10,859 nt of DNA from Nitrospira sp. (GTDB lineage Bacteria; Nitrospirota; Nitrospiria; Nitrospirales; Nitrospiraceae), in assembly GCA_024998705.1 (NCBI GenBank), contig JACOEF010000348.1:1-10859 (forward strand), read 5' to 3'. The notes below the pieces were generated by a model. It saw only the letters and a program-made list of their open reading frames with translations. It had not been told where the DNA came from and made no database searches. Within the stretch, counting starts at the first letter, position 1, and each line of letters begins with the position of its first letter. Position numbers and translations under genes: made by a program. Of the stretch, positions 64 through 10,859 are shown piece after piece.

Positions 64-197
64 GCGGGCTCGCCGGCTGTTCAGAAAGGCCGCCCAGCGG
101 CGTTCTCGCTTCACTCAGAGCCTCAACGTACCGCAAGGGTACGCCTCAGCTCTTCATTCGCTGCGGCCTTGCCGGACAGCCTTTCTGAACAGCCCGC
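64..197 (+). repeat. Hairpin repeat element, copy 1 (intact)
   Basis: A 134-bp imperfect palindrome. The left arm (64-90) and right arm (179-197) pair through GCTGTTCAGAAAGGC and its complement, and the outermost GCGGGC/GCCCGC also pairs if a short insertion in the left arm is bulged out. Inside, a GCCGC..AGCG segment pairs with CGCTGCGGC. The apex is CGTACC (127-132) facing GGGTACG (137-143). The same core recurs at 2750-2876, at 7729-7846, and inverted at 1328-1449. It is noncoding; reading frames across it are by-products of the repeat. It lies upstream of the toxin-antitoxin promoter. The type resembles REP/BIME or MITE-like elements; no transposase is present in the window. Confidence 0.85.
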
Positions 198-416: not shown

Positions 417-626
417 ATGTCCATGACCACCATTTCGACGAAGTTTCAAATCGTGATCCCCAAAGACGTGCGGGAAAAGCTTCACCTGAGTCCTCAGCAG
501 CGCCTGCAAGTCCTGGAAAAAGGCGGAGTAATTACCCTTGTTCCGGAAGTGCCACTTAAGTCACTGAAGGGGGCCCTCAAGGGAATGTCCAAAACAGGCA
601 TCCGGGAGAAGAAGGATCGGCTGTGA
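417..626 (+). CDS. vapB: AbrB/MazE-fold antitoxin (VapB-like)
   Basis: A 69-aa protein. Its N-terminal half (residues about 4-45) has the swapped-hairpin SpoVT/AbrB pattern: TTISTKFQIVIPKDVREKL, then a short beta region ending in ITLVPE. The basic C-terminal tail (about 46-69) would be the part that binds and neutralises the toxin. The start is supported by a strong ribosome binding site, AAGGAGG at 403-409, 7 nt before the ATG. Its stop overlaps the start of the PIN-domain toxin by 4 nt, the usual translationally coupled layout of a VapBC pair. It should bind DNA as a dimer and repress its own promoter; the palindrome at 384-393 is a candidate site. Family assignment is confident; the subgroup (VapB or MazE-like) is not resolved. 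Confidence 0.9.
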   Translation: MSMTTISTKFQIVIPKDVREKLHLSPQQRLQVLEKGGVITLVPEVPLKSLKGALKGMSKTGIREKKDRL

Positions 627-994
627 AGATTTTGTTGGATTCTAGCGGATGGATCGAATTCTTTACAGGCGGACCGTTGGCTGATCGCTACGCTATGTAT
701 CTCACTTCCCGATACGACATCATCACGCCGACGATTGTGTTGTATGAGGTGTATAAGAAGATTAAACGCGAGCGTGGTGAGGAGACAGCCATATTATTCT
801 CTGGACGACTTCATGCAACTCGGGTGGTGCAGCTCACTGAATCTATCGCCTATTTGGCTGCGGATATCAGCCTTCGGCACGGTTTGGCAATGGCTGATGC
901 GATCGTCTACGCGACGGCCCAAGACCAGGATGCCGAGGTCATTACCGGTGATTCAGATCTTAAGGACCTACCTGGAGTGGTATACGTGAAGTAA
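623..994 (+). CDS. vapC: PIN-domain ribonuclease toxin (VapC-like)
   Basis: A 123-aa single PIN domain of typical VapC length. The acidic residues expected to hold the catalytic Mg2+ are visible: Asp6 (ILLDSSGWIEFF), Glu42 (VLYEVYK), Asp92 (MADAIVYA) and Asp110 (ITGDSDL). The toxin is expected to be an RNase that cuts tRNA or rRNA and is held inactive by the upstream antitoxin. The start is GTG at 623, overlapping the antitoxin stop (GTGA), with AAGGA at 612-616 as ribosome binding site. By eye the gene is more A+T-rich than the - strand genes, consistent with horizontal acquisition. It appears intact. The RNA target cannot be read from the sequence. Confidence 0.92.
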   Translation: MKILLDSSGWIEFFTGGPLADRYAMYLTSRYDIITPTIVLYEVYKKIKRERGEETAILFSGRLHATRVVQLTESIAYLAADISLRHGLAMADAIVYATAQDQDAEVITGDSDLKDLPGVVYVK

Positions 995-1450: not shown

Positions 1451-2728
1451 CTAGAAGAAGGCCATGCTGGCATACGTGACCGTCGAATTATACTGATCCG
1501 TGATGCCGCGGTCGTACCGCAACACCTGCCCCGTTTCCGCTTGAATCAAACGCAGCAACGAGTAGATCGGCGAGAAGCCGGAAATGCGGCGTTGATCGTT
1601 TTCTTTCTGAATGAATTTCGCGAATTCTTCCGGGTCGCGGTTCTCGACGTGTTTGAGCATCTCGAGATCGGTTTGCATGCAGCGGTGGAAGGAGAAGTCC
1701 GTCGGCGGCGCCGAGTCACCGTAGCGCATGCCGATGTGGGCCAGTTCTGCTCCCACGACGACACAGTAGTTCTTGCCGGTGGCCACAAGGGCGTCCTTCA
1801 AGGCCTGAAGAAACGTCTCGACCTGCTCCCGTATTTGCGGATCGCGCAGGCTGTCCGCTGAAAACGATGGGAGGATCGGAACAATCGTATACGCCCGGTC
1901 TTTGCCGAGACTCTCTTGCAGGAACGGCAGCTGAAATTCCAGTGCATGTTCATTGTGGTGTGCCAATTCGTCGGTGAAAGCTGAAGGAATCTGCTCGCGC
2001 AGGCGATCGGTAATCGTACGTTCGACCTTCACGAGCCCCAATGGTGTCTCGAAATCCTTGTCCGTCATCGCCACGGGTTGTTCGAGCCCCGAGTAGGCGG
2101 TGCCGATAAGCACGTACAGGTCCGGCTGCTGGGCTTCCTGCAATTCTTTGTAACCCCAGGCATAAATCGGTCCGGCATGTTTCAGCTCGTAGGTCGGCGC
2201 GACGAGCCCCTTGATGAGCTTGCCCGCATGTTCGGATGCCTTGACCTCCGGTCCTTCTTTTGACGTGAAGAAGCCGTTGATCTGGGCGCGAAGTTTAGCG
2301 GCGTCGGCTTCGTAGCTGCGGCCTGCAAACTGCGGCAATCGGGCGGGGGCGTGACGATAGGCGTCCAATGCCTGCTGTTTGGCCTGTTCGGTGCGCTGCC
2401 CTTCCAGGAATAACTTGGTATCCAGATCGGCCAGTAATTGCTCGACCTTGTTCGGCATCAGGAACTCGCCGAACCGCTTCAGGTAGATCGCACCGATGTC
2501 CTGGACGCTGTGCTCCCCGTCGAGATGCTGGACGATGAAGAAATAGTTCAACGGCAGGACCAGTCGTTCCTTGCTCAGTCCGGTGGGGTCCCAGAGCACG
2601 ATGTACTGCTCCTCCCCTTCCTTGATGGGCGAGAATTGTAGGTTACGCAACAGCGGATATTGCGCGGGATCTTTAGCGGCGATGGTCGGCGTTGATTCCA
2701 TAATGAGCGGCATTGTAGCGGAGGCCAC
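1451..2728 (-). CDS. amrB: Divergent Memo-like protein (AmmeMemoRadiSam protein B family) with N-terminal extension
   Basis: A 425-aa protein. Residues about 170-425 follow the Memo fold order: LIKGLVAP, then GPIYAWGYKEL, ETPLG (227-231), HHNEHALEFQLPFLQ (257-271), VVVGAELAHIG (323-333) and a C-terminal TYASMAF. Residues about 25-115 form an extra domain with a winged-helix look (HLDGEHSVQDIG, 68-79), possibly PqqD-like. Alignment by eye with human MEMO1 puts Thr179 at the His49 position (APHAG there, APTYE here) and Tyr212 at the His81 position, and no Cys lies near the C terminus. His331 (DFCH position) and the NEH motif remain. If correct, the canonical metal site is lost. No AMMECR1 or radical-SAM partner is in the window. 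The start is uncertain: GTG at 2728, ATG at 2713 and ATG at 2701 all lack a clear ribosome binding site. The gene lies downstream of the membrane cluster, separated by a repeat element. Confidence 0.82.
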   Translation of the reverse strand: MASATMPLIMESTPTIAAKDPAQYPLLRNLQFSPIKEGEEQYIVLWDPTGLSKERLVLPLNYFFIVQHLDGEHSVQDIGAIYLKRFGEFLMPNKVEQLLADLDTKLFLEGQRTEQAKQQALDAYRHAPARLPQFAGRSYEADAAKLRAQINGFFTSKEGPEVKASEHAGKLIKGLVAPTYELKHAGPIYAWGYKELQEAQQPDLYVLIGTAYSGLEQPVAMTDKDFETPLGLVKVERTITDRLREQIPSAFTDELAHHNEHALEFQLPFLQESLGKDRAYTIVPILPSFSADSLRDPQIREQVETFLQALKDALVATGKNYCVVVGAELAHIGMRYGDSAPPTDFSFHRCMQTDLEMLKHVENRDPEEFAKFIQKENDQRRISGFSPIYSLLRLIQAETGQVLRYDRGITDQYNSTVTYASMAFF

Positions 2729-2997: not shown

Positions 2998-3021
2998 GGC
3001 ACCGGGTGCCAGCCTGGTGCC
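2998..3021 (-). terminator. Small hairpin just after the membrane-protein gene
   Basis: On the - strand, the stop codon of the 251-aa gene runs into GGCACC, a 12-nt gap and GGTGCC. This could form a 6-bp stem immediately 3' of the cluster. There is no T-run after it, so intrinsic termination is doubtful; it may only protect a 3' end. Confidence 0.22.
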
Positions 3022-3776
3022 TACTGTTTCGGTGGCTGTGCGCTACCGCGCCGACTGAGCACGATAAGGGTGGCGACGGTCAGCAAGAAGAGCCAGAGTG
3101 TGGGGCGGCCGTAGGAGGCGTCGGAGAATTCGATCAGGTCCGTCAGGCGGCCGATCAGCAGCGACATGCGGGCCATGACGGTATACCCGAAGGCTGCGCC
3201 GAAGGAGATCATCAGAAAGAGGATGCCGGCGCGCGCGACCGCCTTGCCCGGTCCGGAATGCTCCACGGAGAAAAAGAAATAAAACAGGACCGACACCACC
3301 CCGATCAGAATGATGATGCCGTTCAGATGGCTCGCGGGGTTCAGCAGCGAATAGTCGAACGTGATGCCGCCGCCCGGGGCCACGGCCAGGAGCGGGCGTA
3401 CCGTATCCTCGATCTGCTTCAGGATGAACGACGAAATGGTGCGGGGAATGGCAAGACCGGCGCCGATGCCTACGATAAAGGCGAAGGCATACCGCGAGAG
3501 CCAGGCGGCCTTGGGCACATATCGGGTCAGCATGAGCATGCCGATGGCGACCGGGATCAACAGCGACCATTCTCCCTTCTCGAGGATTGGCCGCAGGATC
3601 AGGGTCATGACCACCGTATCGTAGGTTTTGACGATCGTGTAACCCAGCGAGACGCCGACGTACAGGTGCTCAGACAGCTTGAACAGCGGATTATCCTCGT
3701 ACAGGAAGGACAGGATGAAGAGGGTCAACCCTGTGGCGATCCAGGCGCCGAGTATGACATCGAAGGAAAGATCCAT
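3021..3776 (-). CDS. Polytopic membrane protein, last gene of the ATPase/membrane cluster
   Basis: A 251-aa protein of unknown function with about six or seven hydrophobic segments, near residues 5-25, 39-60, 70-87, 96-115, 152-170, 180-205 and 225-241. Distinctive non-membrane stretches are SFLYEDNPLFKLSEHLYVG (23-41), with several charged residues after the first helix, and GYTVMARMSLLIGRL (197-211) in or after the sixth helix. I recall similar phrases in uncharacterised membrane proteins of other deep-branching phyla but cannot name a family. The ATG lies 4 nt beyond the stop of the preceding 281-aa gene, and an AGGA sits 10 nt upstream, inside that gene's end. The spacing implies co-transcription. 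No transporter or enzyme signature is visible. Confidence 0.85.
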   Translation of the reverse strand: MDLSFDVILGAWIATGLTLFILSFLYEDNPLFKLSEHLYVGVSLGYTIVKTYDTVVMTLILRPILEKGEWSLLIPVAIGMLMLTRYVPKAAWLSRYAFAFIVGIGAGLAIPRTISSFILKQIEDTVRPLLAVAPGGGITFDYSLLNPASHLNGIIILIGVVSVLFYFFFSVEHSGPGKAVARAGILFLMISFGAAFGYTVMARMSLLIGRLTDLIEFSDASYGRPTLWLFLLTVATLIVLSRRGSAQPPKQ

Positions 3777-3780
3777 GCGG

Positions 3781-4626
3781 CTACGATCCTAACCCGTCGT
3801 GCTGGCGCTGCTGCCGCCGCAACGTAAAGTAAAAGATGTTACAGATGGCGACGAGCACGATGATGGCGAGGTGCGTGGCCGACTGCGCATCCATACCGGC
3901 GACCGCCTTCCCCTTCTGCCCGATCAAGGTTTCGTATTCCGCTGCCCCGCGTAACCCGCCGATCAAGCCGTTGATCTGGCCGCTTCTGAGCAAGGGATAG
4001 AGGCCGGGCGCAATCACGCCGGTGCAGCCGCCGCCGAGTTCAAACTTATATTTGTCCTTGCCGAAGACGTACCAGGCTTCGACGCCGGGATTGCCCGCGC
4101 CCAAACTCACCGCATAGGTCACATCGCGCAGATTCTGCACCCCGGTCAGCACCGGCAGTCCCTTCGTGGCCTTGCCGCCATAGTCGGCCGGGAAGGCATT
4201 GTAGAGGTCCTGCCCCATGTTCAGGATGACGGCGCTGCCGCCTGGGCTCCAGCCCAGGAATACATAGTCCTTCCCGTTTTCCTTGCCCGCCTCCTTGGCC
4301 GTTTGCGAGAGAATTTGATCGGCCAATCCGGTGCCGGACACCCAGAGGGTCATGCCCACGACGCGCAGATTCTTCTTGAAGGCATGACGGAGGATGGCGA
4401 TGGCCTGCGGATAGAGCTCGGGTTTGGAGGCGGGATCGAAGTCAAGCGACAAGAGGAAGACCGATCCTTCGGGCAGACCTTCGATATAGTCGTACACGCC
4501 CCGCACTTCCGAGGAAATCTTGATGGGCAGGCCCACGGGAAAGAGCAGCGGCAGAAGCGTGCAGAGGCCGATCACCAGAAAGATGATCCGCCGGTCGATG
4601 CGCAACATGCGTTCAGCGAGGTTCAT
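3781..4626 (-). CDS. Membrane-anchored protein of unknown function (two TM segments, soluble middle)
   Basis: A 281-aa protein. It has an N-terminal TM segment (about 14-34), a soluble alpha/beta middle (about 40-248) and a C-terminal TM segment (about 251-269) ending in a basic tail, RRQQRQ. The soluble part has a strand-helix rhythm (GSVFLLSLDFDPASKPEL, 54-71; LRVVGMTLW, 87-95) and a glycine-rich stretch, GGGCTGVIAPGLYPLL (198-213). With both ends in the membrane, the middle is probably outside the cytoplasm, though topology is inferred. A GTG at 4671 would add 15 residues but has no ribosome binding site, while the ATG at 4626 has GAGGA 7 nt upstream and is preferred. It follows the 216-aa membrane gene after 78 nt and is followed 4 nt later by the 251-aa gene. 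Confidence 0.85.
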   Translation of the reverse strand: MNLAERMLRIDRRIIFLVIGLCTLLPLLFPVGLPIKISSEVRGVYDYIEGLPEGSVFLLSLDFDPASKPELYPQAIAILRHAFKKNLRVVGMTLWVSGTGLADQILSQTAKEAGKENGKDYVFLGWSPGGSAVILNMGQDLYNAFPADYGGKATKGLPVLTGVQNLRDVTYAVSLGAGNPGVEAWYVFGKDKYKFELGGGCTGVIAPGLYPLLRSGQINGLIGGLRGAAEYETLIGQKGKAVAGMDAQSATHLAIIVLVAICNIFYFTLRRQQRQHDGLGS

Positions 4627-4633
4627 CAGTTGT

Positions 4634-4638
4634 TCCTC
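4634..4638 (-). promoter_or_regulatory. Ribosome binding site deciding the 281-aa gene start
   Basis: GAGGA on the - strand, 7 nt before the ATG at 4626. It favours this start over the GTG at 4671, which has no comparable site. Confidence 0.65.
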
Positions 4639-4704
4639 GCGAACCGTGAAGGGTCTGTCATTCGGAAGCACCTGCGCTTCGCGCGATAGAAACGACGCGT
4701 CACG

Positions 4705-5355
4705 TTATTCCTTGCCTCCGCCCAGGTACGAGCGTTCGACGCCGAAGATGATCTTGAACGAGAGGGCCACGGCGCCGAGGCTCACGCCGATCAAAATGGC
4801 GCGCCGAACCGACGCGTTCAGGACGTTTAGAATCCAGCTGGAGAGGTCCCCGCTGATCGGCAGCATATATTCGCCGAGCGGCACCCGCCCCATCATGACG
4901 ATGACGGCGGCCACCAACAACACCGCGGCTTCACGGCTGCGCGCCCGAAACGACCGGTAGGCGGCGGAAGCAATGAAGAAGGCCAGGATCGCGAACATGG
5001 TGCCCTGCAGCGGCACGAGGGTATAGGAGTAGACCCAGCCGAAAGACGTCAGCGCCCCATCGATGCTTTCTTTCCCGCCGTTCCAGAGCCCGACGATGAT
5101 GGTGCCCAGCATCCCGACGTAAAGGACGAGGCTGTACGCCCAGCCGGCTTCCTTCCGCCGGATATTTGACGCATGCACGTGAAAGAGGCTGGCAATTCCC
5201 AATACGAGGGCGAAGCCGCCGCTGATCTGCAGCCATTTAGCGACGGTGGTCAGCAGTTGCTCGGAGGCCGCATGCGGCACGTAGTACTGCGCGGCCATGA
5301 CGAGGCCGGTGATCATCGTGATGAGCAGCGGCAGTTGTCGGCGAAGAAAAATCAT
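4705..5355 (-). CDS. Polytopic membrane protein (about six TM segments)
   Basis: A 216-aa protein with hydrophobic segments near residues 8-26, 41-62, 71-91, 111-132, 142-158 and 185-204. Charged links include HASNIRRKEAGW (61-72) and the basic YRSFRARSREAAVLL (133-147) between the fourth and fifth helices. The function is unknown. I would place it with the uncharacterised membrane partners that tend to travel with the DUF6754-like protein, but this is from memory. The frame could open earlier, at 5394. However, ATG at 5355 is preferred because it overlaps the upstream stop as ATGA and has AAGGA 6 nt before it. The overlap indicates translational coupling with the 415-aa gene, and therefore probably fixed stoichiometry or a shared complex. 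Confidence 0.87.
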   Translation of the reverse strand: MIFLRRQLPLLITMITGLVMAAQYYVPHAASEQLLTTVAKWLQISGGFALVLGIASLFHVHASNIRRKEAGWAYSLVLYVGMLGTIIVGLWNGGKESIDGALTSFGWVYSYTLVPLQGTMFAILAFFIASAAYRSFRARSREAAVLLVAAVIVMMGRVPLGEYMLPISGDLSSWILNVLNASVRRAILIGVSLGAVALSFKIIFGVERSYLGGGKE

Positions 5356-6599
5356 TTCAGATCCTTGAAGAGGTCGAGCAGCGGCTGCGCCCAATTATTC
5401 CCTGTGATGACGGCGAGCGTGGCCAGCACTGTTCCGATTCCGATGACAGCCAACACGAAGGCTTTCCCCAGGTCTTGCCCGCGCAGGGTGCCGATCTGGA
5501 TCGGCTCTTTCGACAGGTAGGCGCTGGCGGCATACAGTTCCCCACCGATCAACGTGTAGTCACAGGTGGTTACGAAAAAGGGCAGCTGGTGATCGGAGTC
5601 CGTCCCGGCGATTTGAATCGCTCCGGTGCTGGCACCGGTTTCAGTCAGAAGCAGCGATTCCGCAAAGTACGAGCCCATGAAAAAGTTGGCCGCCGGTTTC
5701 CGGCGGAGCATGATGCCGTCCACCGCCGCGGTGTAGCTGAACTGGTCGCTCGTGATGAAAAAGTTTGCGTCCTCCTTGAAGAGGTCCGGCTTGCCGGCTT
5801 CCATGTACGCTTGTTTGGTAATTTCCTGGCACACGGCCATGGTGATCGGCTCGCGGTGCGGTACCAGCAGTTCAGTTTCATAGGCAGCGGCCTTCTTGGC
5901 GACACGTCCCAGGATGACGGCGGCGGCGATCGTCGAGGGGTCGTTCATATCGTGCGCTCCGGTCATGTAGAGAATCGGCTTGCCCAATTCCGTCGCGCGC
6001 CCGATGGCTTCATCGACGGCATCGAGCCCGGGAATCCGCCGCAAGAAAATCTCTTTCCGCCTGGCCAGGTTGATGGCGTAGAACACGACGCCCCCGAACA
6101 TCAAGGCCAGCACCAGATTGTTGAGTTGGTTCCAATTCATCCAGTTCGGTTCGGGCGAGGCGAGGATCGGCAGGGCAATCACCCGTCCCTGACCGTTTGC
6201 GGCAGCCACCGTGACGGCATAGGCTTGATCGGCTTTCAGTTCGACGCCCTTCCCGTTCTTGAGTAGGAAGAGATGATCGCCGGGGTCGCCGGATCTCGTC
6301 CACCAGGCGGTCTTGCCCTCGCGAACATAGCGGGTATTGGCCGGAAATTCGGCGACGACTTTCCATGCGGACGGGTCTGCAGGCACGCTGCCCTCATGCA
6401 GCAGGATTTGATATTTCCACGTGGCGCTGTCGCTTGCCGAGGGAGCCCAGAGGACCGTGAGACTGCCGCCCCCATCACTGGGGGTATCGATGACCCGAAG
6501 CTGCTGCGGGAGGGTTTGTGCCGGGAGGAACGACGGCAGGCACGCGAGCATCGCGACGGCCAGAGAGAGAAGGCGAAGGTAGTGTGACACGCGGCTCAT
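5352..6599 (-). CDS. Signal/TM protein with a large soluble domain (DUF6754-like)
   Basis: A 415-aa protein. It has an N-terminal signal-like hydrophobic stretch (about 8-28), then a beta-rich segment (about 31-135) resembling a fibronectin type III domain (LTVLWAPSASDSATWKYQI, 47-65). A TM helix follows (159-178, ending in NLARRKE). The main soluble domain (about 188-375) includes PILYMTGAHDMNDPSTIAA (208-226), FFITSDQFSYTAAVDGIMLR (280-299) and AANFFMGSYFAESLLLTETG (303-322). A C-terminal TM (about 378-399) follows. By the positive-inside rule the main domain would be cytoplasmic and the FN3-like part outside. The main domain resembles the family I recall as DUF6754; the function is unknown. 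The start overlaps the 375-aa gene's stop as ATGA, with GGAG just upstream. Confidence 0.87.
   Translation of the reverse strand: MSRVSHYLRLLSLAVAMLACLPSFLPAQTLPQQLRVIDTPSDGGGSLTVLWAPSASDSATWKYQILLHEGSVPADPSAWKVVAEFPANTRYVREGKTAWWTRSGDPGDHLFLLKNGKGVELKADQAYAVTVAAANGQGRVIALPILASPEPNWMNWNQLNNLVLALMFGGVVFYAINLARRKEIFLRRIPGLDAVDEAIGRATELGKPILYMTGAHDMNDPSTIAAAVILGRVAKKAAAYETELLVPHREPITMAVCQEITKQAYMEAGKPDLFKEDANFFITSDQFSYTAAVDGIMLRRKPAANFFMGSYFAESLLLTETGASTGAIQIAGTDSDHQLPFFVTTCDYTLIGGELYAASAYLSKEPIQIGTLRGQDLGKAFVLAVIGIGTVLATLAVITGNNWAQPLLDLFKDLK
5362..5366 (-). promoter_or_regulatory. Ribosome binding site deciding the 216-aa gene start
   Basis: AAGGA on the - strand, 6 nt before the ATG at 5355 and inside the end of the upstream gene. 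Together with the ATGA overlap it rules in the internal start and makes the 13-residue longer reading (from 5394) unlikely. Confidence 0.7.
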
Positions 6600-7723
6600 G
6601 CTCCCTCGATCACTTCGATGTTGGCGCGGGGCACCACGGTGGTCGTGCCGTCGGGAAACCGGACTTCGAGCACGCGGACTTCACTCTCGGTGGGAATCGC
6701 TCTGAGTTCTGAGGGCAGGCCGGACACGGCGCCGATCTTGCCGAACAGCGGATCGCGGATGATCCGCACGGGATCGCCGAGCTGAATGCCTTCGCGCTCG
6801 ATCCGTGGAGCCTTGGCGTCGCCGGCGAGTGCCGCCTGGGGGATGATGATTTCCGGACGAATCACACCGGCTCGAATTTGCGTCGCCCCTGAGATAGACG
6901 CCTTCCGGCCCGCCCGGGAGGACAACAGGGCGAACGTCTTGGGCGCCATCGGGATCGTGCCGAACCCTTCCGTCAGGATCAACGTGAAGCCGACCTGTTC
7001 GCTGCCGGTGATTGCCACGCCCAAGTCATATCCGAGCAGCGCGCGCAGGTCTTTGTCGTGAATCCCCCCGACGACCAACCCGACGATGCCGAGCTCTTTT
7101 GCGCGGGTCATGGTGGCGGCCGACAGGAATGCGCCTCCGATCACGATCTTGCCCTTCATCGCCGGCGTCAACTGTTCAGGCGTCAGGGGCTGATCCGGCG
7201 CCGTGACGCCCATGACCAATTCCCCGCTGGTCTCTCCGCCGATGCCGAAGATGCCCTGTACCAGACTGCAGGAGGTTTCGACCGTCACGCCCTGTTCGGG
7301 GTGCACTTCGACAATCGAACCGTCGATATAGCCGAGCAGTTCGAGGATGCGCGGCGGTTCCCGCAATAGAATCTGGCCGGTGATGGTGGACACGGATTCC
7401 ACCTTGCCGGTGATCGGCGAGCGGATTTCCGTTTTAAACCATTTGATGAAGGGTTTGTTCTCGGCCAGCACGTCGTCCTTCTGAACCGAATCTTTTTCCT
7501 TCTTCACCAGATAGTCGTTGATCTCATCCGGCGCAATGCCCAGCTGGTTCGCCAGGTTGAGCGGAACGACTTTGCCCGGCAACTCCGCACGAGCCACAGC
7601 CGTATCGGCGTGAACGGGGGCTCCCACCTCGACCAGGACGGTCCCGGGCAGCGGGAGAATACGCCTGCGGCGAACGGTGGTCCGTTCGGTGACGGTTAAG
7701 CCTGGTGTGTAACTATGTGCCAT
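6596..7723 (-). CDS. Cytosolic protein with barrel-sandwich (biotinyl/lipoyl-like) and C-terminal KOW-like domains
   Basis: A 375-aa protein with no TM segment. The N-terminal third carries two stretches typical of barrel-sandwich hybrids: PLPGTVLVEVGAPVHADTAV (24-43), and SVQKDDVLAENK (79-90) with IRSPITGKVESVS (100-112). There is no MKM-type biotinylation site, so a structural role is more likely than a cofactor-carrying one. The middle (about 185-300) is alpha/beta and glycine-rich (KGKIVIGGAFLSAATMTRAK, 190-209). The C terminus (about 315-370) looks like a KOW motif (GDPVRIIRDPLFGKIGAVSG, 316-335), a fold that binds RNA or protein. The function is unknown. The ATG at 7723 has no recognisable ribosome binding site, and a hairpin repeat begins 5 nt upstream. 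It overlaps the DUF6754-like gene by 4 nt. Confidence 0.85.
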   Translation of the reverse strand: MAHSYTPGLTVTERTTVRRRRILPLPGTVLVEVGAPVHADTAVARAELPGKVVPLNLANQLGIAPDEINDYLVKKEKDSVQKDDVLAENKPFIKWFKTEIRSPITGKVESVSTITGQILLREPPRILELLGYIDGSIVEVHPEQGVTVETSCSLVQGIFGIGGETSGELVMGVTAPDQPLTPEQLTPAMKGKIVIGGAFLSAATMTRAKELGIVGLVVGGIHDKDLRALLGYDLGVAITGSEQVGFTLILTEGFGTIPMAPKTFALLSSRAGRKASISGATQIRAGVIRPEIIIPQAALAGDAKAPRIEREGIQLGDPVRIIRDPLFGKIGAVSGLPSELRAIPTESEVRVLEVRFPDGTTTVVPRANIEVIEGA

Positions 7724-7728
7724 TGTCG

Positions 7729-7846
7729 GTTGCTGAAAACGCCCTACCGCTTCGTTCTCAGTTGCTCGCTCCCCTCACCGTACAACTTCCGGTATGACTC
7801 GGGGCTCTCGCGCCTTGCGGCCTCGCCGCAGGGCGTTTTGAGCAAC
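7729..7846 (+). repeat. Hairpin repeat element, copy 4
   Basis: A 118-bp element. GTTGCTGAAAACGCCCT (7729-7745) pairs with AGGGCGTTTTGAGCAAC (7830-7846) except for one G-G mismatch next to the A/T run. The core is more diverged than in copies 1 and 2 but keeps CGTTCTCAGTTGCTCGCTC, CGTAC near the apex and CTTGCGGCCTCGCCG. It lies between the MutL-like and barrel/KOW genes, inside the cluster, and its outer arm ends 5 nt before the start codon of the latter. On the - strand transcript it would place a stem exactly where a ribosome binding site should be. Confidence 0.82.
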
Positions 7847-7859
7847 TTCCTCATGATAA

Positions 7860-8011
7860 GAGCTGATTGCTAATAGCCGATGGCAACGCGCCCAAAGCCA
7901 AGAGCGAATAATTCATGGCTTGTCTCTGACGGATTGCATGACCGACTTGGTTGCATGGGCTATCCGCATTCGGTTTCTTGCCATAAGCCATTCGCTATCA
8001 GCCATTAGCTC
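7860..8011. repeat. Long imperfect inverted repeat built of GCTRATNGC-like units
   Basis: The left arm, GAGCTGATTGCTAATAGCCG onward (7860-7884), matches the complement of the right arm (7987-8011) at about 20 of 25 positions. Both arms are made of short GCTNAT-type units, and the right arm continues with CCATAAG. The right arm contains the stop codon of the MutL-like gene (TAA at 8005-8007). Between the arms lies about 100 bp with no gene I can support; a reading frame starting at 7920 is not protein-like. Confidence 0.5.
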
Positions 8012-9855
8012 CCCGCCGGGTACAGTCCGACTGCCTGGTACCATCTGTTCAACATGGCGACGCGGGCAGTCTGTTCGCCTGGTAATTGTAACGGGCGACC
8101 ACGGCCGTCGAGCATGAGGCCGACCACGCCACCCTGTACTGTTTTTGTGAACGACTGTCCCGGTCCGCTGCCGAGATCGACCTGTTTGACCGGTTGCATC
8201 GTCACCGTGGCCTGCTGCTCTCGCGTCAGCGCAAACAGTTTGAGCTCTCCGAACGCCAGCATGCCCTTCTCCATCCGTCCGTCCGGCAACGCGATTTCAT
8301 AGTCGGCGCAGCGCTCCCCGTCTTTTCCCTGTCCGATCGGGGCGATGCAGGTGCCGAGATACACCATGCAATCCCGCACAAACACATCGGTGGCGGCCTG
8401 CTCGTTCACGGTCGAGAGTACGCCGAGGTGCGGCATCATGAAAATGCTGTCGACCGAGAGTGTCGTGACACCGAGTGGTTCATAGGCATCAACCATCATC
8501 AACATGGATTGAATGCGGCGTGGCGCATGCGACAGAATGCCGCCGCTGCCGACGATCAAATCCAGTGTCAACAGATCGATCAGGGTTTTGCCGGAAGTCC
8601 GCTGTTCGAACACATCGGAAATGGTGCGTTCCTGCTGGATGCCTTTGAGTCCCGTGGCGAGCGACTTGTGGTGAATCAACGCCAGCCGCAAGGCTTCACG
8701 CGCGATGGCATGTTCGATCTGCAGTTCGTCGAGCGATTGCGGAATCGTCGTGGGCCGCACCATCTTGTTCTTGATGCGGTTGCGCAGGGTTTGTTCGTCG
8801 ATGGTAAACGGCACCCAGCGCATGATGTTGTCGAGCCCTGCTTCCGCCAGCACGTTCGAAATGCTGTAGGACATGCCGAGGTTCGCGCTGACCGTGCGAT
8901 TGAAGAGTCCGTTGAAGACCGAGAACACGTCGGTGGTGGCTCCGCCGATATCGACGCCGATCAGATTGATGTGTTCGCGTTTGGCGATCGTCTCCATGAT
9001 GACGCCAACTGCTGCCGGAGTCGGCATGATGGGCGCGCCGGCCATCTCGATAAGTTTTTTGTAACCGGGGGCCTGCTGCATGACGTGTTCGAGAAAGAGG
9101 TCATGGATCTTGTTGCGGGCGGGCGCCAGGTTTTCGCGCTCGAGGACCGGCCGGATATTGTCGGCGAAATCCAAGGCGGTCTTTTCGCCGAGAATGGTTT
9201 TGATTTGCGGCCGGGCGTCTGTGTTGCCGGCGTACACGAGCGGCAGCCGGTAGGTGCTGCCGAAGCGCGGTCGCGGATCGGCGGCGCCAATGTACTCCGC
9301 CATCTCCATGACATGGGTGACGGCGCCGCCGTCGGTGCCGCCGGACATCAGGATCATGTCCGGGCGCATGGTTCGAATCCGCTCGATCTTCTCGTACGGA
9401 AGCCGTCCATCGTTGGAGGCCAAGACGTCGATCACGATGGCGCCGGCGCCGAGGGCGGCGCGTTGAGCGCTTTCCCCCGTCATGTTCTGCACCACGCCGG
9501 TGACCATCATCTGCAATCCGCCGCCGGCACTGCTGGTGGACACGTAAATATCCACACCTCGCTTCGGAACGCCCTGCGCCGCCTGGTTGGGGGTGATGAT
9601 GCGATCGCCCTCCAGAATCGTCCGCCCGGACAATTCTTCGATTTCGGCGATGGCATTCAAGACGCCTCGGGTGACGTCTTCAAAGGGCGCTTCGACCGTC
9701 GTCGGCGCTTCACCACGGTAGGTTTGGCGATACTCATCCCCGACCTTTTCGATCAGAATGGCTTTGGTGGTGGTGCTGCCGCAATCGGTCGCGACGATGA
9801 CGTTCAGGGGAAGGGCAGTTGCCGGTGTTGCGGGCGCGTGAGGCTGTTCCGTCAT
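8005..9855 (-). CDS. MutL-like ASKHA-fold ATPase (glutamate mutase L family, orphan)
   Basis: A 616-aa protein of the glutamate mutase MutL family, an actin/Hsp70/sugar-kinase fold. Visible motifs are phosphate-1 VATDCGSTTTKAI (21-33), STSSAGGGLQMMVTG (106-120), SGGTDGG (171-177), VYAGN (207-211), phosphate-2 IGVDIGGATTDVF (299-311) and an adenosine-type loop, IVGSGGILSHA (434-444). These predict ATP binding and hydrolysis. MutL in clostridial operons lies between the two subunits of the B12-dependent glutamate mutase and may act as a reactivase. Neither subunit nor any B12-binding motif is present here, and the neighbours are membrane proteins, so the role is probably different: an ATPase serving the membrane complex is my inference. 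The ATG overlaps the 124-aa gene's stop as ATGA, so the two are coupled. The gene appears intact. Confidence 0.9.
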   Translation of the reverse strand: MTEQPHAPATPATALPLNVIVATDCGSTTTKAILIEKVGDEYRQTYRGEAPTTVEAPFEDVTRGVLNAIAEIEELSGRTILEGDRIITPNQAAQGVPKRGVDIYVSTSSAGGGLQMMVTGVVQNMTGESAQRAALGAGAIVIDVLASNDGRLPYEKIERIRTMRPDMILMSGGTDGGAVTHVMEMAEYIGAADPRPRFGSTYRLPLVYAGNTDARPQIKTILGEKTALDFADNIRPVLERENLAPARNKIHDLFLEHVMQQAPGYKKLIEMAGAPIMPTPAAVGVIMETIAKREHINLIGVDIGGATTDVFSVFNGLFNRTVSANLGMSYSISNVLAEAGLDNIMRWVPFTIDEQTLRNRIKNKMVRPTTIPQSLDELQIEHAIAREALRLALIHHKSLATGLKGIQQERTISDVFEQRTSGKTLIDLLTLDLIVGSGGILSHAPRRIQSMLMMVDAYEPLGVTTLSVDSIFMMPHLGVLSTVNEQAATDVFVRDCMVYLGTCIAPIGQGKDGERCADYEIALPDGRMEKGMLAFGELKLFALTREQQATVTMQPVKQVDLGSGPGQSFTKTVQGGVVGLMLDGRGRPLQLPGEQTARVAMLNRWYQAVGLYPAGS

Positions 9856-10226
9856 CGAGCGGGCGCTCCCTGAGGAGCCGCGGCCTTGGCTTCGATGAGG
9901 GCGGTCAGGCGATGCATGGAATCACGCTGTTCCAGGAGGCGCGCGATCTGCGCGAGCTCCGTGTTCGTCAGCACGCATTCAACGATGGGAGCCAGGAAGT
10001 GCAGCGCCTGGCTGCCGAGAAAGTTCATGGGCCCCATCGATTCGAGAAACAGCGTGGCCGGTGCGGCCATGCCGCGCGCGACGACGGCGTCGGCAACGCG
10101 TTCGAGCAGGGCCAAGTCTTCGATCGTGAAGGTTGCTTGTTCGGGACGCACGGCAAAGGCGTGCCGGAGACCAGCTCGAAGATCCTGTGCGCGACGGGAT
10201 AAAAAACCAGCGGAGAAGGCAGACAT
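9852..10226 (-). CDS. Small helical partner of the MutL-like ATPase, function unknown
   Basis: A 124-aa soluble, mostly helical protein. Its most distinctive stretch is ATLFLESMGPMNFLGSQALH (57-76), followed by FLAPIVECVL and a helix ending in LLEQRDSMHRLTALIE (97-112). I recall the phrase 'FLES..P..F.GSQAL.FL.P' in small uncharacterised proteins beside MutL-like genes; this is memory, not a search. The tail (113-124) is Ala/Pro-rich. It is the first gene after a strong promoter and is coupled to the ATPase by a 4-nt overlap, so a binding partner or regulator of the ATPase is a reasonable inference. There is no clear ribosome binding site before the ATG at 10226 and no alternative start nearby. 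Confidence 0.82.
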   Translation of the reverse strand: MSAFSAGFLSRRAQDLRAGLRHAFAVRPEQATFTIEDLALLERVADAVVARGMAAPATLFLESMGPMNFLGSQALHFLAPIVECVLTNTELAQIARLLEQRDSMHRLTALIEAKAAAPQGAPAR

Positions 10227-10325: not shown

Positions 10326-10769
10326 CTACGGGTTCTTCTCCGGCGGTGGCTCGCCTGCTGCCGGTGAACAATTCACGCCGGCGAAGGGATTCAGCGGGTT
10401 GAGTCGCGGTGAGCAACGTTGCGCTTCGGGTGCGGCCTTTTCTGAGGCCTCCTTCGCAGCCGGCGGTGATAATGCCGGGTCGCCTGGGCCCGGTTGGGGA
10501 GGAACCATCGGGGCAGCCGAGAGGGATGGTGGAATCGAATTCGCCGGTAGTTCCGTCTGTGCCGGTGCGGCCGGCTCGACCGGCGGGGTGAATCCTCCCG
10601 GGAGCGAGGGCGTGGCCGTGTCGATCGCGACGCAGCCTGGTTTGCCCTTCGGCTGGTCTGTCAGGATGGTGCGGCCATTGGCGCCTTGGCAACGATAGAC
10701 CTTAGCGGTTGCCCTGTCCGGCAGGAGGAGTACGACGAGGGTGAGAAGCAGGACGTGAACCCAGAACAT
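10326..10769 (-). CDS. Small exported DUF4124-like protein with a Pro/Ala-rich tail
   Basis: A 147-aa protein. Residues 1-22 form a signal peptide (hydrophobic run followed by ATA). Next comes a short DUF4124-like segment, KVYRCQGANGRTILTDQP (23-40), followed by GKPGC. The remainder (about 50-118) is a low-complexity Pro/Ala/Ser stretch, and a short Cys-containing end, RCSPRLNPLNPFAGVNCSP (118-136), closes it. Four Cys (27, 46, 119, 134) could form two disulfides in the periplasm. The function of DUF4124 proteins is unknown. The frame can open at a TTG at 10775, but the ATG at 10769, with GGA about 10 nt upstream, is preferred. A strong promoter follows between this gene and the next, so it is probably not part of the downstream operon. 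Confidence 0.75.
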   Translation of the reverse strand: MFWVHVLLLTLVVLLLPDRATAKVYRCQGANGRTILTDQPKGKPGCVAIDTATPSLPGGFTPPVEPAAPAQTELPANSIPPSLSAAPMVPPQPGPGDPALSPPAAKEASEKAAPEAQRCSPRLNPLNPFAGVNCSPAAGEPPPEKNP

Positions 10770-10859
10770 CGTCAATTTTCCGGTGCCGGATCTTGTCCGG
10801 TAAAGGCCTGCAGGCGAAGGATCGGCTTGTTGATTCGGATGGACTATAGGCGTGAGGCG

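What the first reader, a model, noticed from the sequence alone, without database searches (positions are those of the whole stretch)
3021..10226. Candidate undescribed system: an orphan MutL-like ATPase with a set of uncharacterised membrane proteins
Seven consecutive - strand genes combine a cytosolic ASKHA-fold ATPase, a small partner, a barrel-sandwich/KOW protein, a two-TM DUF6754-like protein and three more membrane proteins. Two ATGA overlaps and one 4-nt gap join most of the second block, and another ATGA overlap joins the first two genes. The sequence shows no mutase subunit, no transporter signature and no secretion signature. The stoichiometric coupling and the ATPase motifs suggest an energised or ATP-gated envelope complex. 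The ATPase's database name would hide this.
Basis: partly seen in the sequence, partly recalled or inferred. Interest (0 to 1): 0.8.

Follow-up and report, generated by a model that had tools for sequence, protein, structure and literature searches.

The report
Undescribed seven-gene ATPase-membrane protein operon
Seven neighbouring genes of unknown function, one for a likely ATP-using protein and four for membrane proteins, are inherited together in the same order by many Nitrospira-type and related bacteria, so they probably build one machine in the cell envelope that seems not to have been described.

Summary
Window 3021-10226 carries seven minus-strand genes (A-G) with three ATGA overlaps and one 4-nt gap. 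The host is a Nitrospira-type MAG. B is a MutL-family (PF13941) ASKHA ATPase with a 120-residue C-terminal extension. It scores far below the GlmL cut-off (226 versus 475 bits), and no glutamate mutase was found in 61 Nitrospirales genomes. In Methylomirabilota (NC10) the three genuine GlmL genes sit beside mutase E and lack the block. B, D and F share presence and absence across 61 Nitrospirales genomes apart from contig ends. All seven genes were recognised in order in 56 of 73 named loci; 15 of the other 17 lack only genes beyond a contig end. Relatives of C match barrel-sandwich and KOW families; D has an FnIII domain and a DUF6754 domain with 85 of 177 positions invariant in 53 sequences; E and G have six hydrophobic segments, F two. 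New clue: one Nitrospirales family carries c-heme proteins inside the operon. Most likely it is an ATP-switched inner-membrane complex. Its substrate is unknown; assembly and ATP coupling are inferred, not shown. Nothing on it appeared in the literature listings searched.

The parts
9852..10226 (-). Gene A, 124 aa small soluble protein, ATGA overlap with B
   Evidence: no hydrophobic segment over the threshold; no Pfam match better than E 0.028 in any of 21 relatives; region around FLESxGPMNFLGSQALHF conserved
8005..9855 (-). Gene B, 616 aa MutL-family (PF13941) ASKHA ATPase with a C-terminal extension of about 120 residues
   Evidence: PF13941 426.2 bits over residues 20-495; below GlmL, OR-4 and glmL_fam cut-offs; DCGSTTTK, DIGGATTD and GSGG motifs conserved
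7724..8004 (.). 281-nt spacer between B and C with a 17-nt near-perfect inverted pair (read by eye); not part of the conserved block
   Evidence: in 61 relatives the B-C distance (stop codon included) is median 94 nt
6596..7723 (-). Gene C, 375 aa soluble barrel-sandwich-like and KOW-like protein
   Evidence: Alignment A4; RnfC_N 22 of 25, Biotin_lipoyl 18 of 25, KOW 11 of 25 members at E up to 0.5
5352..6599 (-). Gene D, 415 aa: N-terminal hydrophobic segment, FnIII domain, TM helix, predicted cytosolic DUF6754 domain, C-terminal TM helix
   Evidence: PF20539 385.2 bits; FnIII by structure; hydropathy; invariant core
4705..5355 (-). Gene E, 216 aa membrane protein with six hydrophobic segments, ATGA overlap with D
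   Evidence: no Pfam match better than E 0.005 in any of 30 members
3781..4626 (-). Gene F, 281 aa membrane protein: TM, alpha/beta domain predicted outside, TM
   Evidence: no Pfam match better than E 0.048 in any of 29 members
3021..3776 (-). Gene G, 251 aa membrane protein with six hydrophobic segments, 4 nt after F
   Evidence: no Pfam match better than E 0.012 in any of 33 members
1451..2728 (-). Gene H, 425 aa Memo-family protein; follows G in 56 of 61 named f1/f2-type loci that show G, not found beside the block in the NC10 or f4 loci
   Evidence: TIGR04336 121.7 bits

Best explanation
The seven genes encode one inner-membrane complex switched by ATP. B, helped by the small protein A, is an ASKHA-type ATPase whose open/closed nucleotide cycle does the switching (motifs shown; activity inferred). 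C, a soluble barrel-sandwich/KOW protein, is the adaptor that passes that motion to the membrane (inferred). D, E, F and G are the membrane part: D's cytosolic DUF6754 domain is the docking or catalytic site facing B and C, E and G supply the membrane-embedded body, and the FnIII domain of D and the alpha/beta domain of F work on the outer face of the membrane (topology predicted; contacts inferred). A redox- or heme-linked extracytoplasmic substrate is the best present guess, because one lineage adds c-heme proteins inside the operon.
For: All of A-G recognised in order in 56 of 73 named loci examined; 15 of the other 17 lack only genes beyond a contig end. B, D and F share presence and absence over 61 Nitrospirales and 79 NC10 genomes except at contig ends. 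ATGA overlap at D/E in 58 of 67 and at A/B in 41 of 55 loci. B lacks mutase partners while true GlmL has them. ATPase motifs are intact. Topology: A-C soluble, D-G membrane. Pairwise-identity correlations among B-G are 0.91-0.97 over 49 loci (no unlinked control). In f2-type loci one or two Tll0287-like CxxCH proteins lie just upstream of D.
Confidence: 0.42

Rival explanations
1. Reactivase reading: B with its small partner A is an ATP-dependent chaperone that re-arms an enzyme, as proposed for GlmL and known for the diol-dehydratase and ethanolamine-lyase reactivases (recalled), and the enzyme is the membrane module, with DUF6754 as the catalytic domain.
For: B belongs to the same Pfam family as GlmL and has a small soluble partner gene overlapping it. 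The DUF6754 core has 85 invariant positions of 177, including His, Arg, Cys, Asp and Glu, which looks like an active site.
Against: No known cofactor-binding family was matched over cut-off in D-G. GlmL's own biochemical role is unproven (recalled). A matches no family.
Confidence: 0.25
2. ATP-assisted redox machine: C is an RnfC/NqrA-like adaptor, E and G are six-TM subunits in the manner of Rnf/Nqr, and ATP hydrolysis by B drives or gates electron transfer to extracytoplasmic heme partners.
For: Weak RnfC_N (22 of 25) and NQRA_N (11 of 25) matches in C; E and G each have six hydrophobic segments; c-heme Tll0287-like proteins inside the f2 operons. A preprint reports redox-like properties for stand-alone members of that family, on one tested protein (PMC12889525, abstract and passages seen).
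Against: No Rnf-Nqr membrane family was reported for E or G. The 25 aligned C proteins show only one near-invariant Cys and no shared iron-sulfur Cys motif. Heme proteins were not found in the other operons scanned.
Confidence: 0.13
3. Co-regulated neighbours only: genes for several separate envelope functions kept together without forming one complex.
For: B and C overlap in none of the 61 loci measured. Flanks include envelope housekeeping genes: secG in NC10, plsY/pgsA in some Nitrospira.
Against: Near-constant order and joint presence or absence across families and two phyla.
Confidence: 0.12
4. B still serves a B12 mutase in trans (methylmalonyl-CoA mutase) and its membrane neighbours are unrelated to it.
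For: PF01642 is present in 38 of 61 Nitrospirales, including the window's genome on another contig.
Against: 10 of the 47 genomes with DUF6754 have no PF01642 match, 7 of them at least 90% complete and at most 5% contaminated; G011 has PF01642 without the block. B is locked to C-G, not to the mutase.
Confidence: 0.04

Closest known systems
GlmL / MutL accessory protein of glutamate mutase (NF040745, PF13941)
   Same: Same Pfam family, same three nucleotide-binding motifs, about 31% identity
   Different: 616 aa instead of 463-472; extra C-terminal region; GlmL score 226 against cut-off 475 while three genuine GlmL score 554-558; no mutase neighbour; found with C-G
Membrane platforms with an ASKHA partner: PilM-PilN-PilO, MreB-MreC-MreD (recalled)
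   Same: General plan: cytosolic ASKHA protein plus several inner-membrane proteins with extracytoplasmic domains
   Different: No protein of the block matches the Pfam families of those systems; B falls in the MutL family with a weak hydantoinase match; the membrane proteins show no sequence relation
Rnf / Nqr electron-transfer complexes
   Same: C has a barrel-sandwich domain weakly like RnfC_N and NQRA_N; E and G have six hydrophobic segments
   Different: No Rnf-Nqr family match, no shared iron-sulfur motif in C, and an ATPase instead
Tll0287/DUF3365 (sCache_heme) proteins
   Same: Found inside the operon of one Nitrospirales family (PF11845, CxxCH)
   Different: Not part of the core block; absent in the window

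Membership tests
PF13941 MutL (Pfam) | Score over the curated cut-off (27 bits) across the profile | tested here: met
   426.2 bits, profile positions 1-449 of 450
GlmL equivalog NF040745 | Score at or above 475 bits | tested here: not met
   226.4 bits; positive controls L175, L176, L177 score 554-558, three other operon B proteins 220-234
GlmL equivalog NF040745 | Gene beside glutamate mutase subunits | tested here: not met
   PF06368 in 0 of 61 Nitrospirales genomes; all three canonical NC10 GlmL genes have MutE next door
Ornithine OR-4 (NF040744) | Score at or above 600 bits | tested here: not met
   204.5 bits
ASKHA ATPase | Phosphate-1, phosphate-2 and adenosine motifs | tested here: met
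   DCGSTTTK, DIGGATTD, GSGG aligned with GlmL motifs; motif names recalled
ASKHA ATPase | ATP binding or hydrolysis | not testable with these tools
   needs purified protein
PF20539 DUF6754 | Score over the curated cut-off (27 bits) | tested here: met
   D, 385.2 bits
Rnf/Nqr complex | RnfC_N barrel-sandwich over cut-off in C | tested here: inconclusive
   Window C 13.8 bits against 25.6; matched with E up to 0.5 in 22 of 25 members, best E 3.5e-6
Rnf/Nqr complex | Membrane subunits of the Rnf-Nqr family | tested here: not met
   Not reported for E (30 members) or G (33 members) at E up to 0.5
Rnf/Nqr complex | Iron-sulfur Cys motif in the RnfC-like subunit | tested here: not met
   One near-invariant Cys in the alignment of 25 C proteins (read by eye)
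PilMNO or MreBCD type platform | Membership of those Pfam families | tested here: not met
   Not among the Pfam matches of A-G at E up to 1; fold relationship not tested
AmmeMemoRadiSam protein B (TIGR04336), gene H | Score over the cut-off (26 bits) | tested here: met
   121.7 bits
AmmeMemoRadiSam system, gene H | AMMECR1 and radical SAM partner genes nearby | tested here: inconclusive
   Neither family is among the Pfam matches of the 10 window proteins scanned; the window is the whole contig, so further flanks of this genome are not available

The most novel reading that the evidence does not exclude
A previously unknown kind of energised inner-membrane machine, shared by Nitrospira-type bacteria, NC10 and probably other phyla, in which a mutase-chaperone-type ASKHA ATPase has been re-purposed to drive or gate a DUF6754 membrane complex acting on an extracytoplasmic, redox-linked substrate.
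Probability: 0.25. Interest if true: 0.85.

Novelty: categorically new. Interest (0 to 1): 0.6.

Why it matters
B and F average 67% and 66% identity between Nitrospira-family and NC10 loci, against 59% for the one core-metabolism control, phosphoglycerate kinase, over 251 residues. The lineages matter for the nitrogen cycle (recalled), yet A, C, E, F and G reach no Pfam or NCBIfam cut-off, D is a domain of unknown function, and the ATPase carries a misleading family name. Automatic annotation as 'MutL/GlmL' hides the system. If it is an ATP-switched membrane machine, it would be a new way of using an ASKHA ATPase, and the co-occurrence pattern makes it directly testable.

Tried and rejected
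GlmL or another B12-mutase accessory role: rejected for glutamate mutase on score, context and distribution; a trans role with methylmalonyl-CoA mutase is disfavoured, not excluded. Other B12 enzymes were not searched genome-wide.

Virus and plasmid routes: no relative of D confirmed in IMG/VR contigs or found in plasmids. RNA families at gathering score and tRNAs: none in the window.

Distribution outside Nitrospirota and NC10 could not be measured: the single genome-contig scan found 170 encoding stretches and kept the best 80; by title these are Nitrospirota-type or NC10 records, plus one titled uncultured Nitrosospira. Only protein names (Candidatus Binatia, Deltaproteobacteria) point further, and of about 8,000 scored proteins only the best 120 were listed in each.

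Literature: among the papers listed by searches (none; 20 of 42; 15 of 455; 1 of 1; 10 of 31; 10 of 201; 10 of 14; 1 of 1), no title or abstract start concerned this block; unlisted hits were not seen. (4 of 4) led to one preprint on Tll0287 proteins, of which I saw the abstract, outline and passages. All other papers were seen only in search listings.
Full report
What is there. The window is the whole of contig C436 of a 4.16-Mb, 1,028-contig MAG. The nearest named database proteins are from Nitrospira and Nitrospirota, Nitrospira defluvii among them. Seven minus-strand genes fill 3021-10226: A (124 aa), B (616), C (375), D (415), E (216 with the start used by relatives), F (281, likewise) and G (251). 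A/B, C/D and D/E share ATGA; F/G are 4 nt apart; B and C are 281 nt apart; E and F 78 nt.

It is one block. Of 80 named loci from genome contigs, seven of 5.5 kb or less were not examined. In the other 73 all A-G hits lie on one strand, and in 56 all seven genes were recognised in order (in two, L055 and L056, the longest F frame starts upstream of E, which I count as in order). Of the other 17, 15 lack only genes that lie beyond a contig end; L065 lacks A at a contig end and has E in two pieces in different frames with a part missing; L100 has no recognisable A, a G match that covers only residues 3-185, and no H. Eight of the 80 are titled Methylomirabilota or Methylomirabilis. In 61 Nitrospirales genomes DUF6754 occurs in 47, MutL in 44 and F in 45. 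Every genome with B or F has D. The three with D but no B (G020, G036, G048) and the two with D but no F (G028, G055) have the block at a contig end. The 14 without D also lack B and F: all 12 genomes of family f3, G011 (99% complete) and G035. In 79 NC10 genomes DUF6754 occurs in 14, F in 15 and operon-type MutL in 14. The mismatches are G269 (contig ends inside D), G255 (a 3,956-base contig on which B has no room) and G234 (contig ends inside E). A 148-genome draw of Nitrospirota found DUF6754 in 31, all of them in family f1.

It is not GlmL. In the same NC10 set three other genomes (G247, G252, G253) carry canonical GlmL of 463-472 aa scoring 554-558 bits, each with mutase E (PF06368) next door and no DUF6754 match in the genome. 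One further match over the Pfam cut-off (G224, 27 bits, 35 profile positions) is fragmentary, and 18 NC10 genomes have only weak matches below the cut-off. PF06368 is absent from all 61 Nitrospirales genomes. Against a wholly 'orphan' reading, 38 of 61 have a methylmalonyl-CoA mutase family gene; in the window's genome it is on another contig. Ten of the 47 genomes with DUF6754 have none, seven of those at least 90% complete and at most 5% contaminated, and G011 has it without the block.

How it is kept. Mean identities between 41 f1-type and 4 NC10 loci are B 67, F 66, E 61, C 56, D 56, G 54%. One housekeeping control, NC10 phosphoglycerate kinase against the window's genome, gave 59% over 251 residues. 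Pairwise identities of B-G over 49 loci correlate at 0.91-0.97; shared species history alone would give high values, and no unlinked gene was compared. The D/E ATGA overlap is kept in 58 of 67 loci and A/B in 41 of 55; B/C never overlap in 61 ('-1' there is an ATGA overlap because stop codons were not counted).

New clues from the surroundings. In the seven loci that group with family f2 and were scanned (L051, L059, L060, L065, L066, L067, L076), one or two proteins with a CxxCH heme motif lie just upstream of D on the same strand, between C and D where C is visible: two copies in L059, L065 and L066, one in L067 and L051, one visible in L060 and L076, whose contigs start there (the motif itself was checked in the six loci). 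A short eighth f2-like locus, L061, has a frame with such a motif too. L076 is placed in f2 by resemblance. The scan found none in the f1, f4 and NC10 loci. Five of these proteins match PF11845 Tll0287-like at 73-85 bits. A 2026 preprint (PMC12889525; abstract, outline and passages seen) reports that family as c-heme Cache domains whose stand-alone kind has redox-like properties, on one tested protein; its main text does not mention MutL or operons. Gene H (Memo) was found in 56 of the 61 named f1/f2-type loci that show G; three of the five without it end there, L100 and L116 do not. It was not found in the f4 or NC10 loci. In 15 NC10 loci (two of them repeats of a contig) secG lies 13-150 nt upstream of A; in 17 of the named Nitrospira-type loci plsY and in 14 pgsA lie upstream on the same strand, plsY within 155 nt in six, elsewhere up to 6 kb away.

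Mechanism. Shown: the block, the ATPase motifs, the predicted topology, the conserved DUF6754 core, the absence of glutamate mutase partners. Inferred: that the proteins form a complex, that B's ATP cycle switches it through C, that D's core is the docking or catalytic site, and that the work is done at the outer face. The redox guess rests on the f2 heme proteins and, weakly, on Memo and the Rnf/Nqr-like barrel-sandwich; it is the weakest step. The reactivase reading is the main rival and could be combined with it.

Reach. D has at least 7,853 relatives with E at or below 0.001 among the 8,000 candidates scored, a ceiling, and names from Candidatus Binatia and Deltaproteobacteria appear among the 120 listed, so DUF6754 reaches further than two phyla. 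Whether the whole block exists there was not tested.

Verdict. I rate it categorically new because no known system tested here includes it; that rating rests on sequence families and on the open-access literature listings named under Tried and rejected.

Noticed in passing
L059:8396-9917, L065:2872-4393, L066:4622-6176, L067:8082-8828, L051:8319-9134: One or two Tll0287-like (PF11845) heme proteins are inserted between C and D in Nitrospirales family f2 only, among the loci scanned.
   Followed up: partly
L184 (G234 contig C67): A genome of the NC10 draw carries E, F, G and a Memo gene of Nitrospirales type (about 62-75% identical to the window's), which suggests contamination or transfer.
   Followed up: no
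L100 and L065: Two loci where the block looks decayed or misassembled: L100 lacks A and H and has a shortened G match; L065 has E in two pieces in different frames.
   Followed up: no
window 72-197, 1336-1439, 2750-2876: A roughly 125-nt repeat occurs twice in direct and once in inverted orientation; probably a dispersed genomic repeat.
   Followed up: no
window 417-994: AbrB-type protein (TIGR01439, 48.5 bits) and PIN-domain protein (PF01850, 69.4 bits) with a 4-nt overlap, looking like a VapBC-like toxin-antitoxin module (label recalled).
   Followed up: no
window 10326-10775: 149-aa gene upstream of A, found in several Nitrospira loci (gene I), only weakly like DUF4124.
   Followed up: partly
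window 1451-2728: The Memo-family protein H carries about 130 N-terminal residues ahead of its Memo domain.
   Followed up: no
L052:9594-9785, L053:9627-9818, L054:4462-4662: In family f4 a conserved 64-67-codon reading frame on the opposite strand (MAKRNRERAKQAKRKAK...) sits between C and D.
   Followed up: no
G011: A 99%-complete genome of the window's own genus lacks B, D and F altogether, a natural absence useful for comparison.
   Followed up: no
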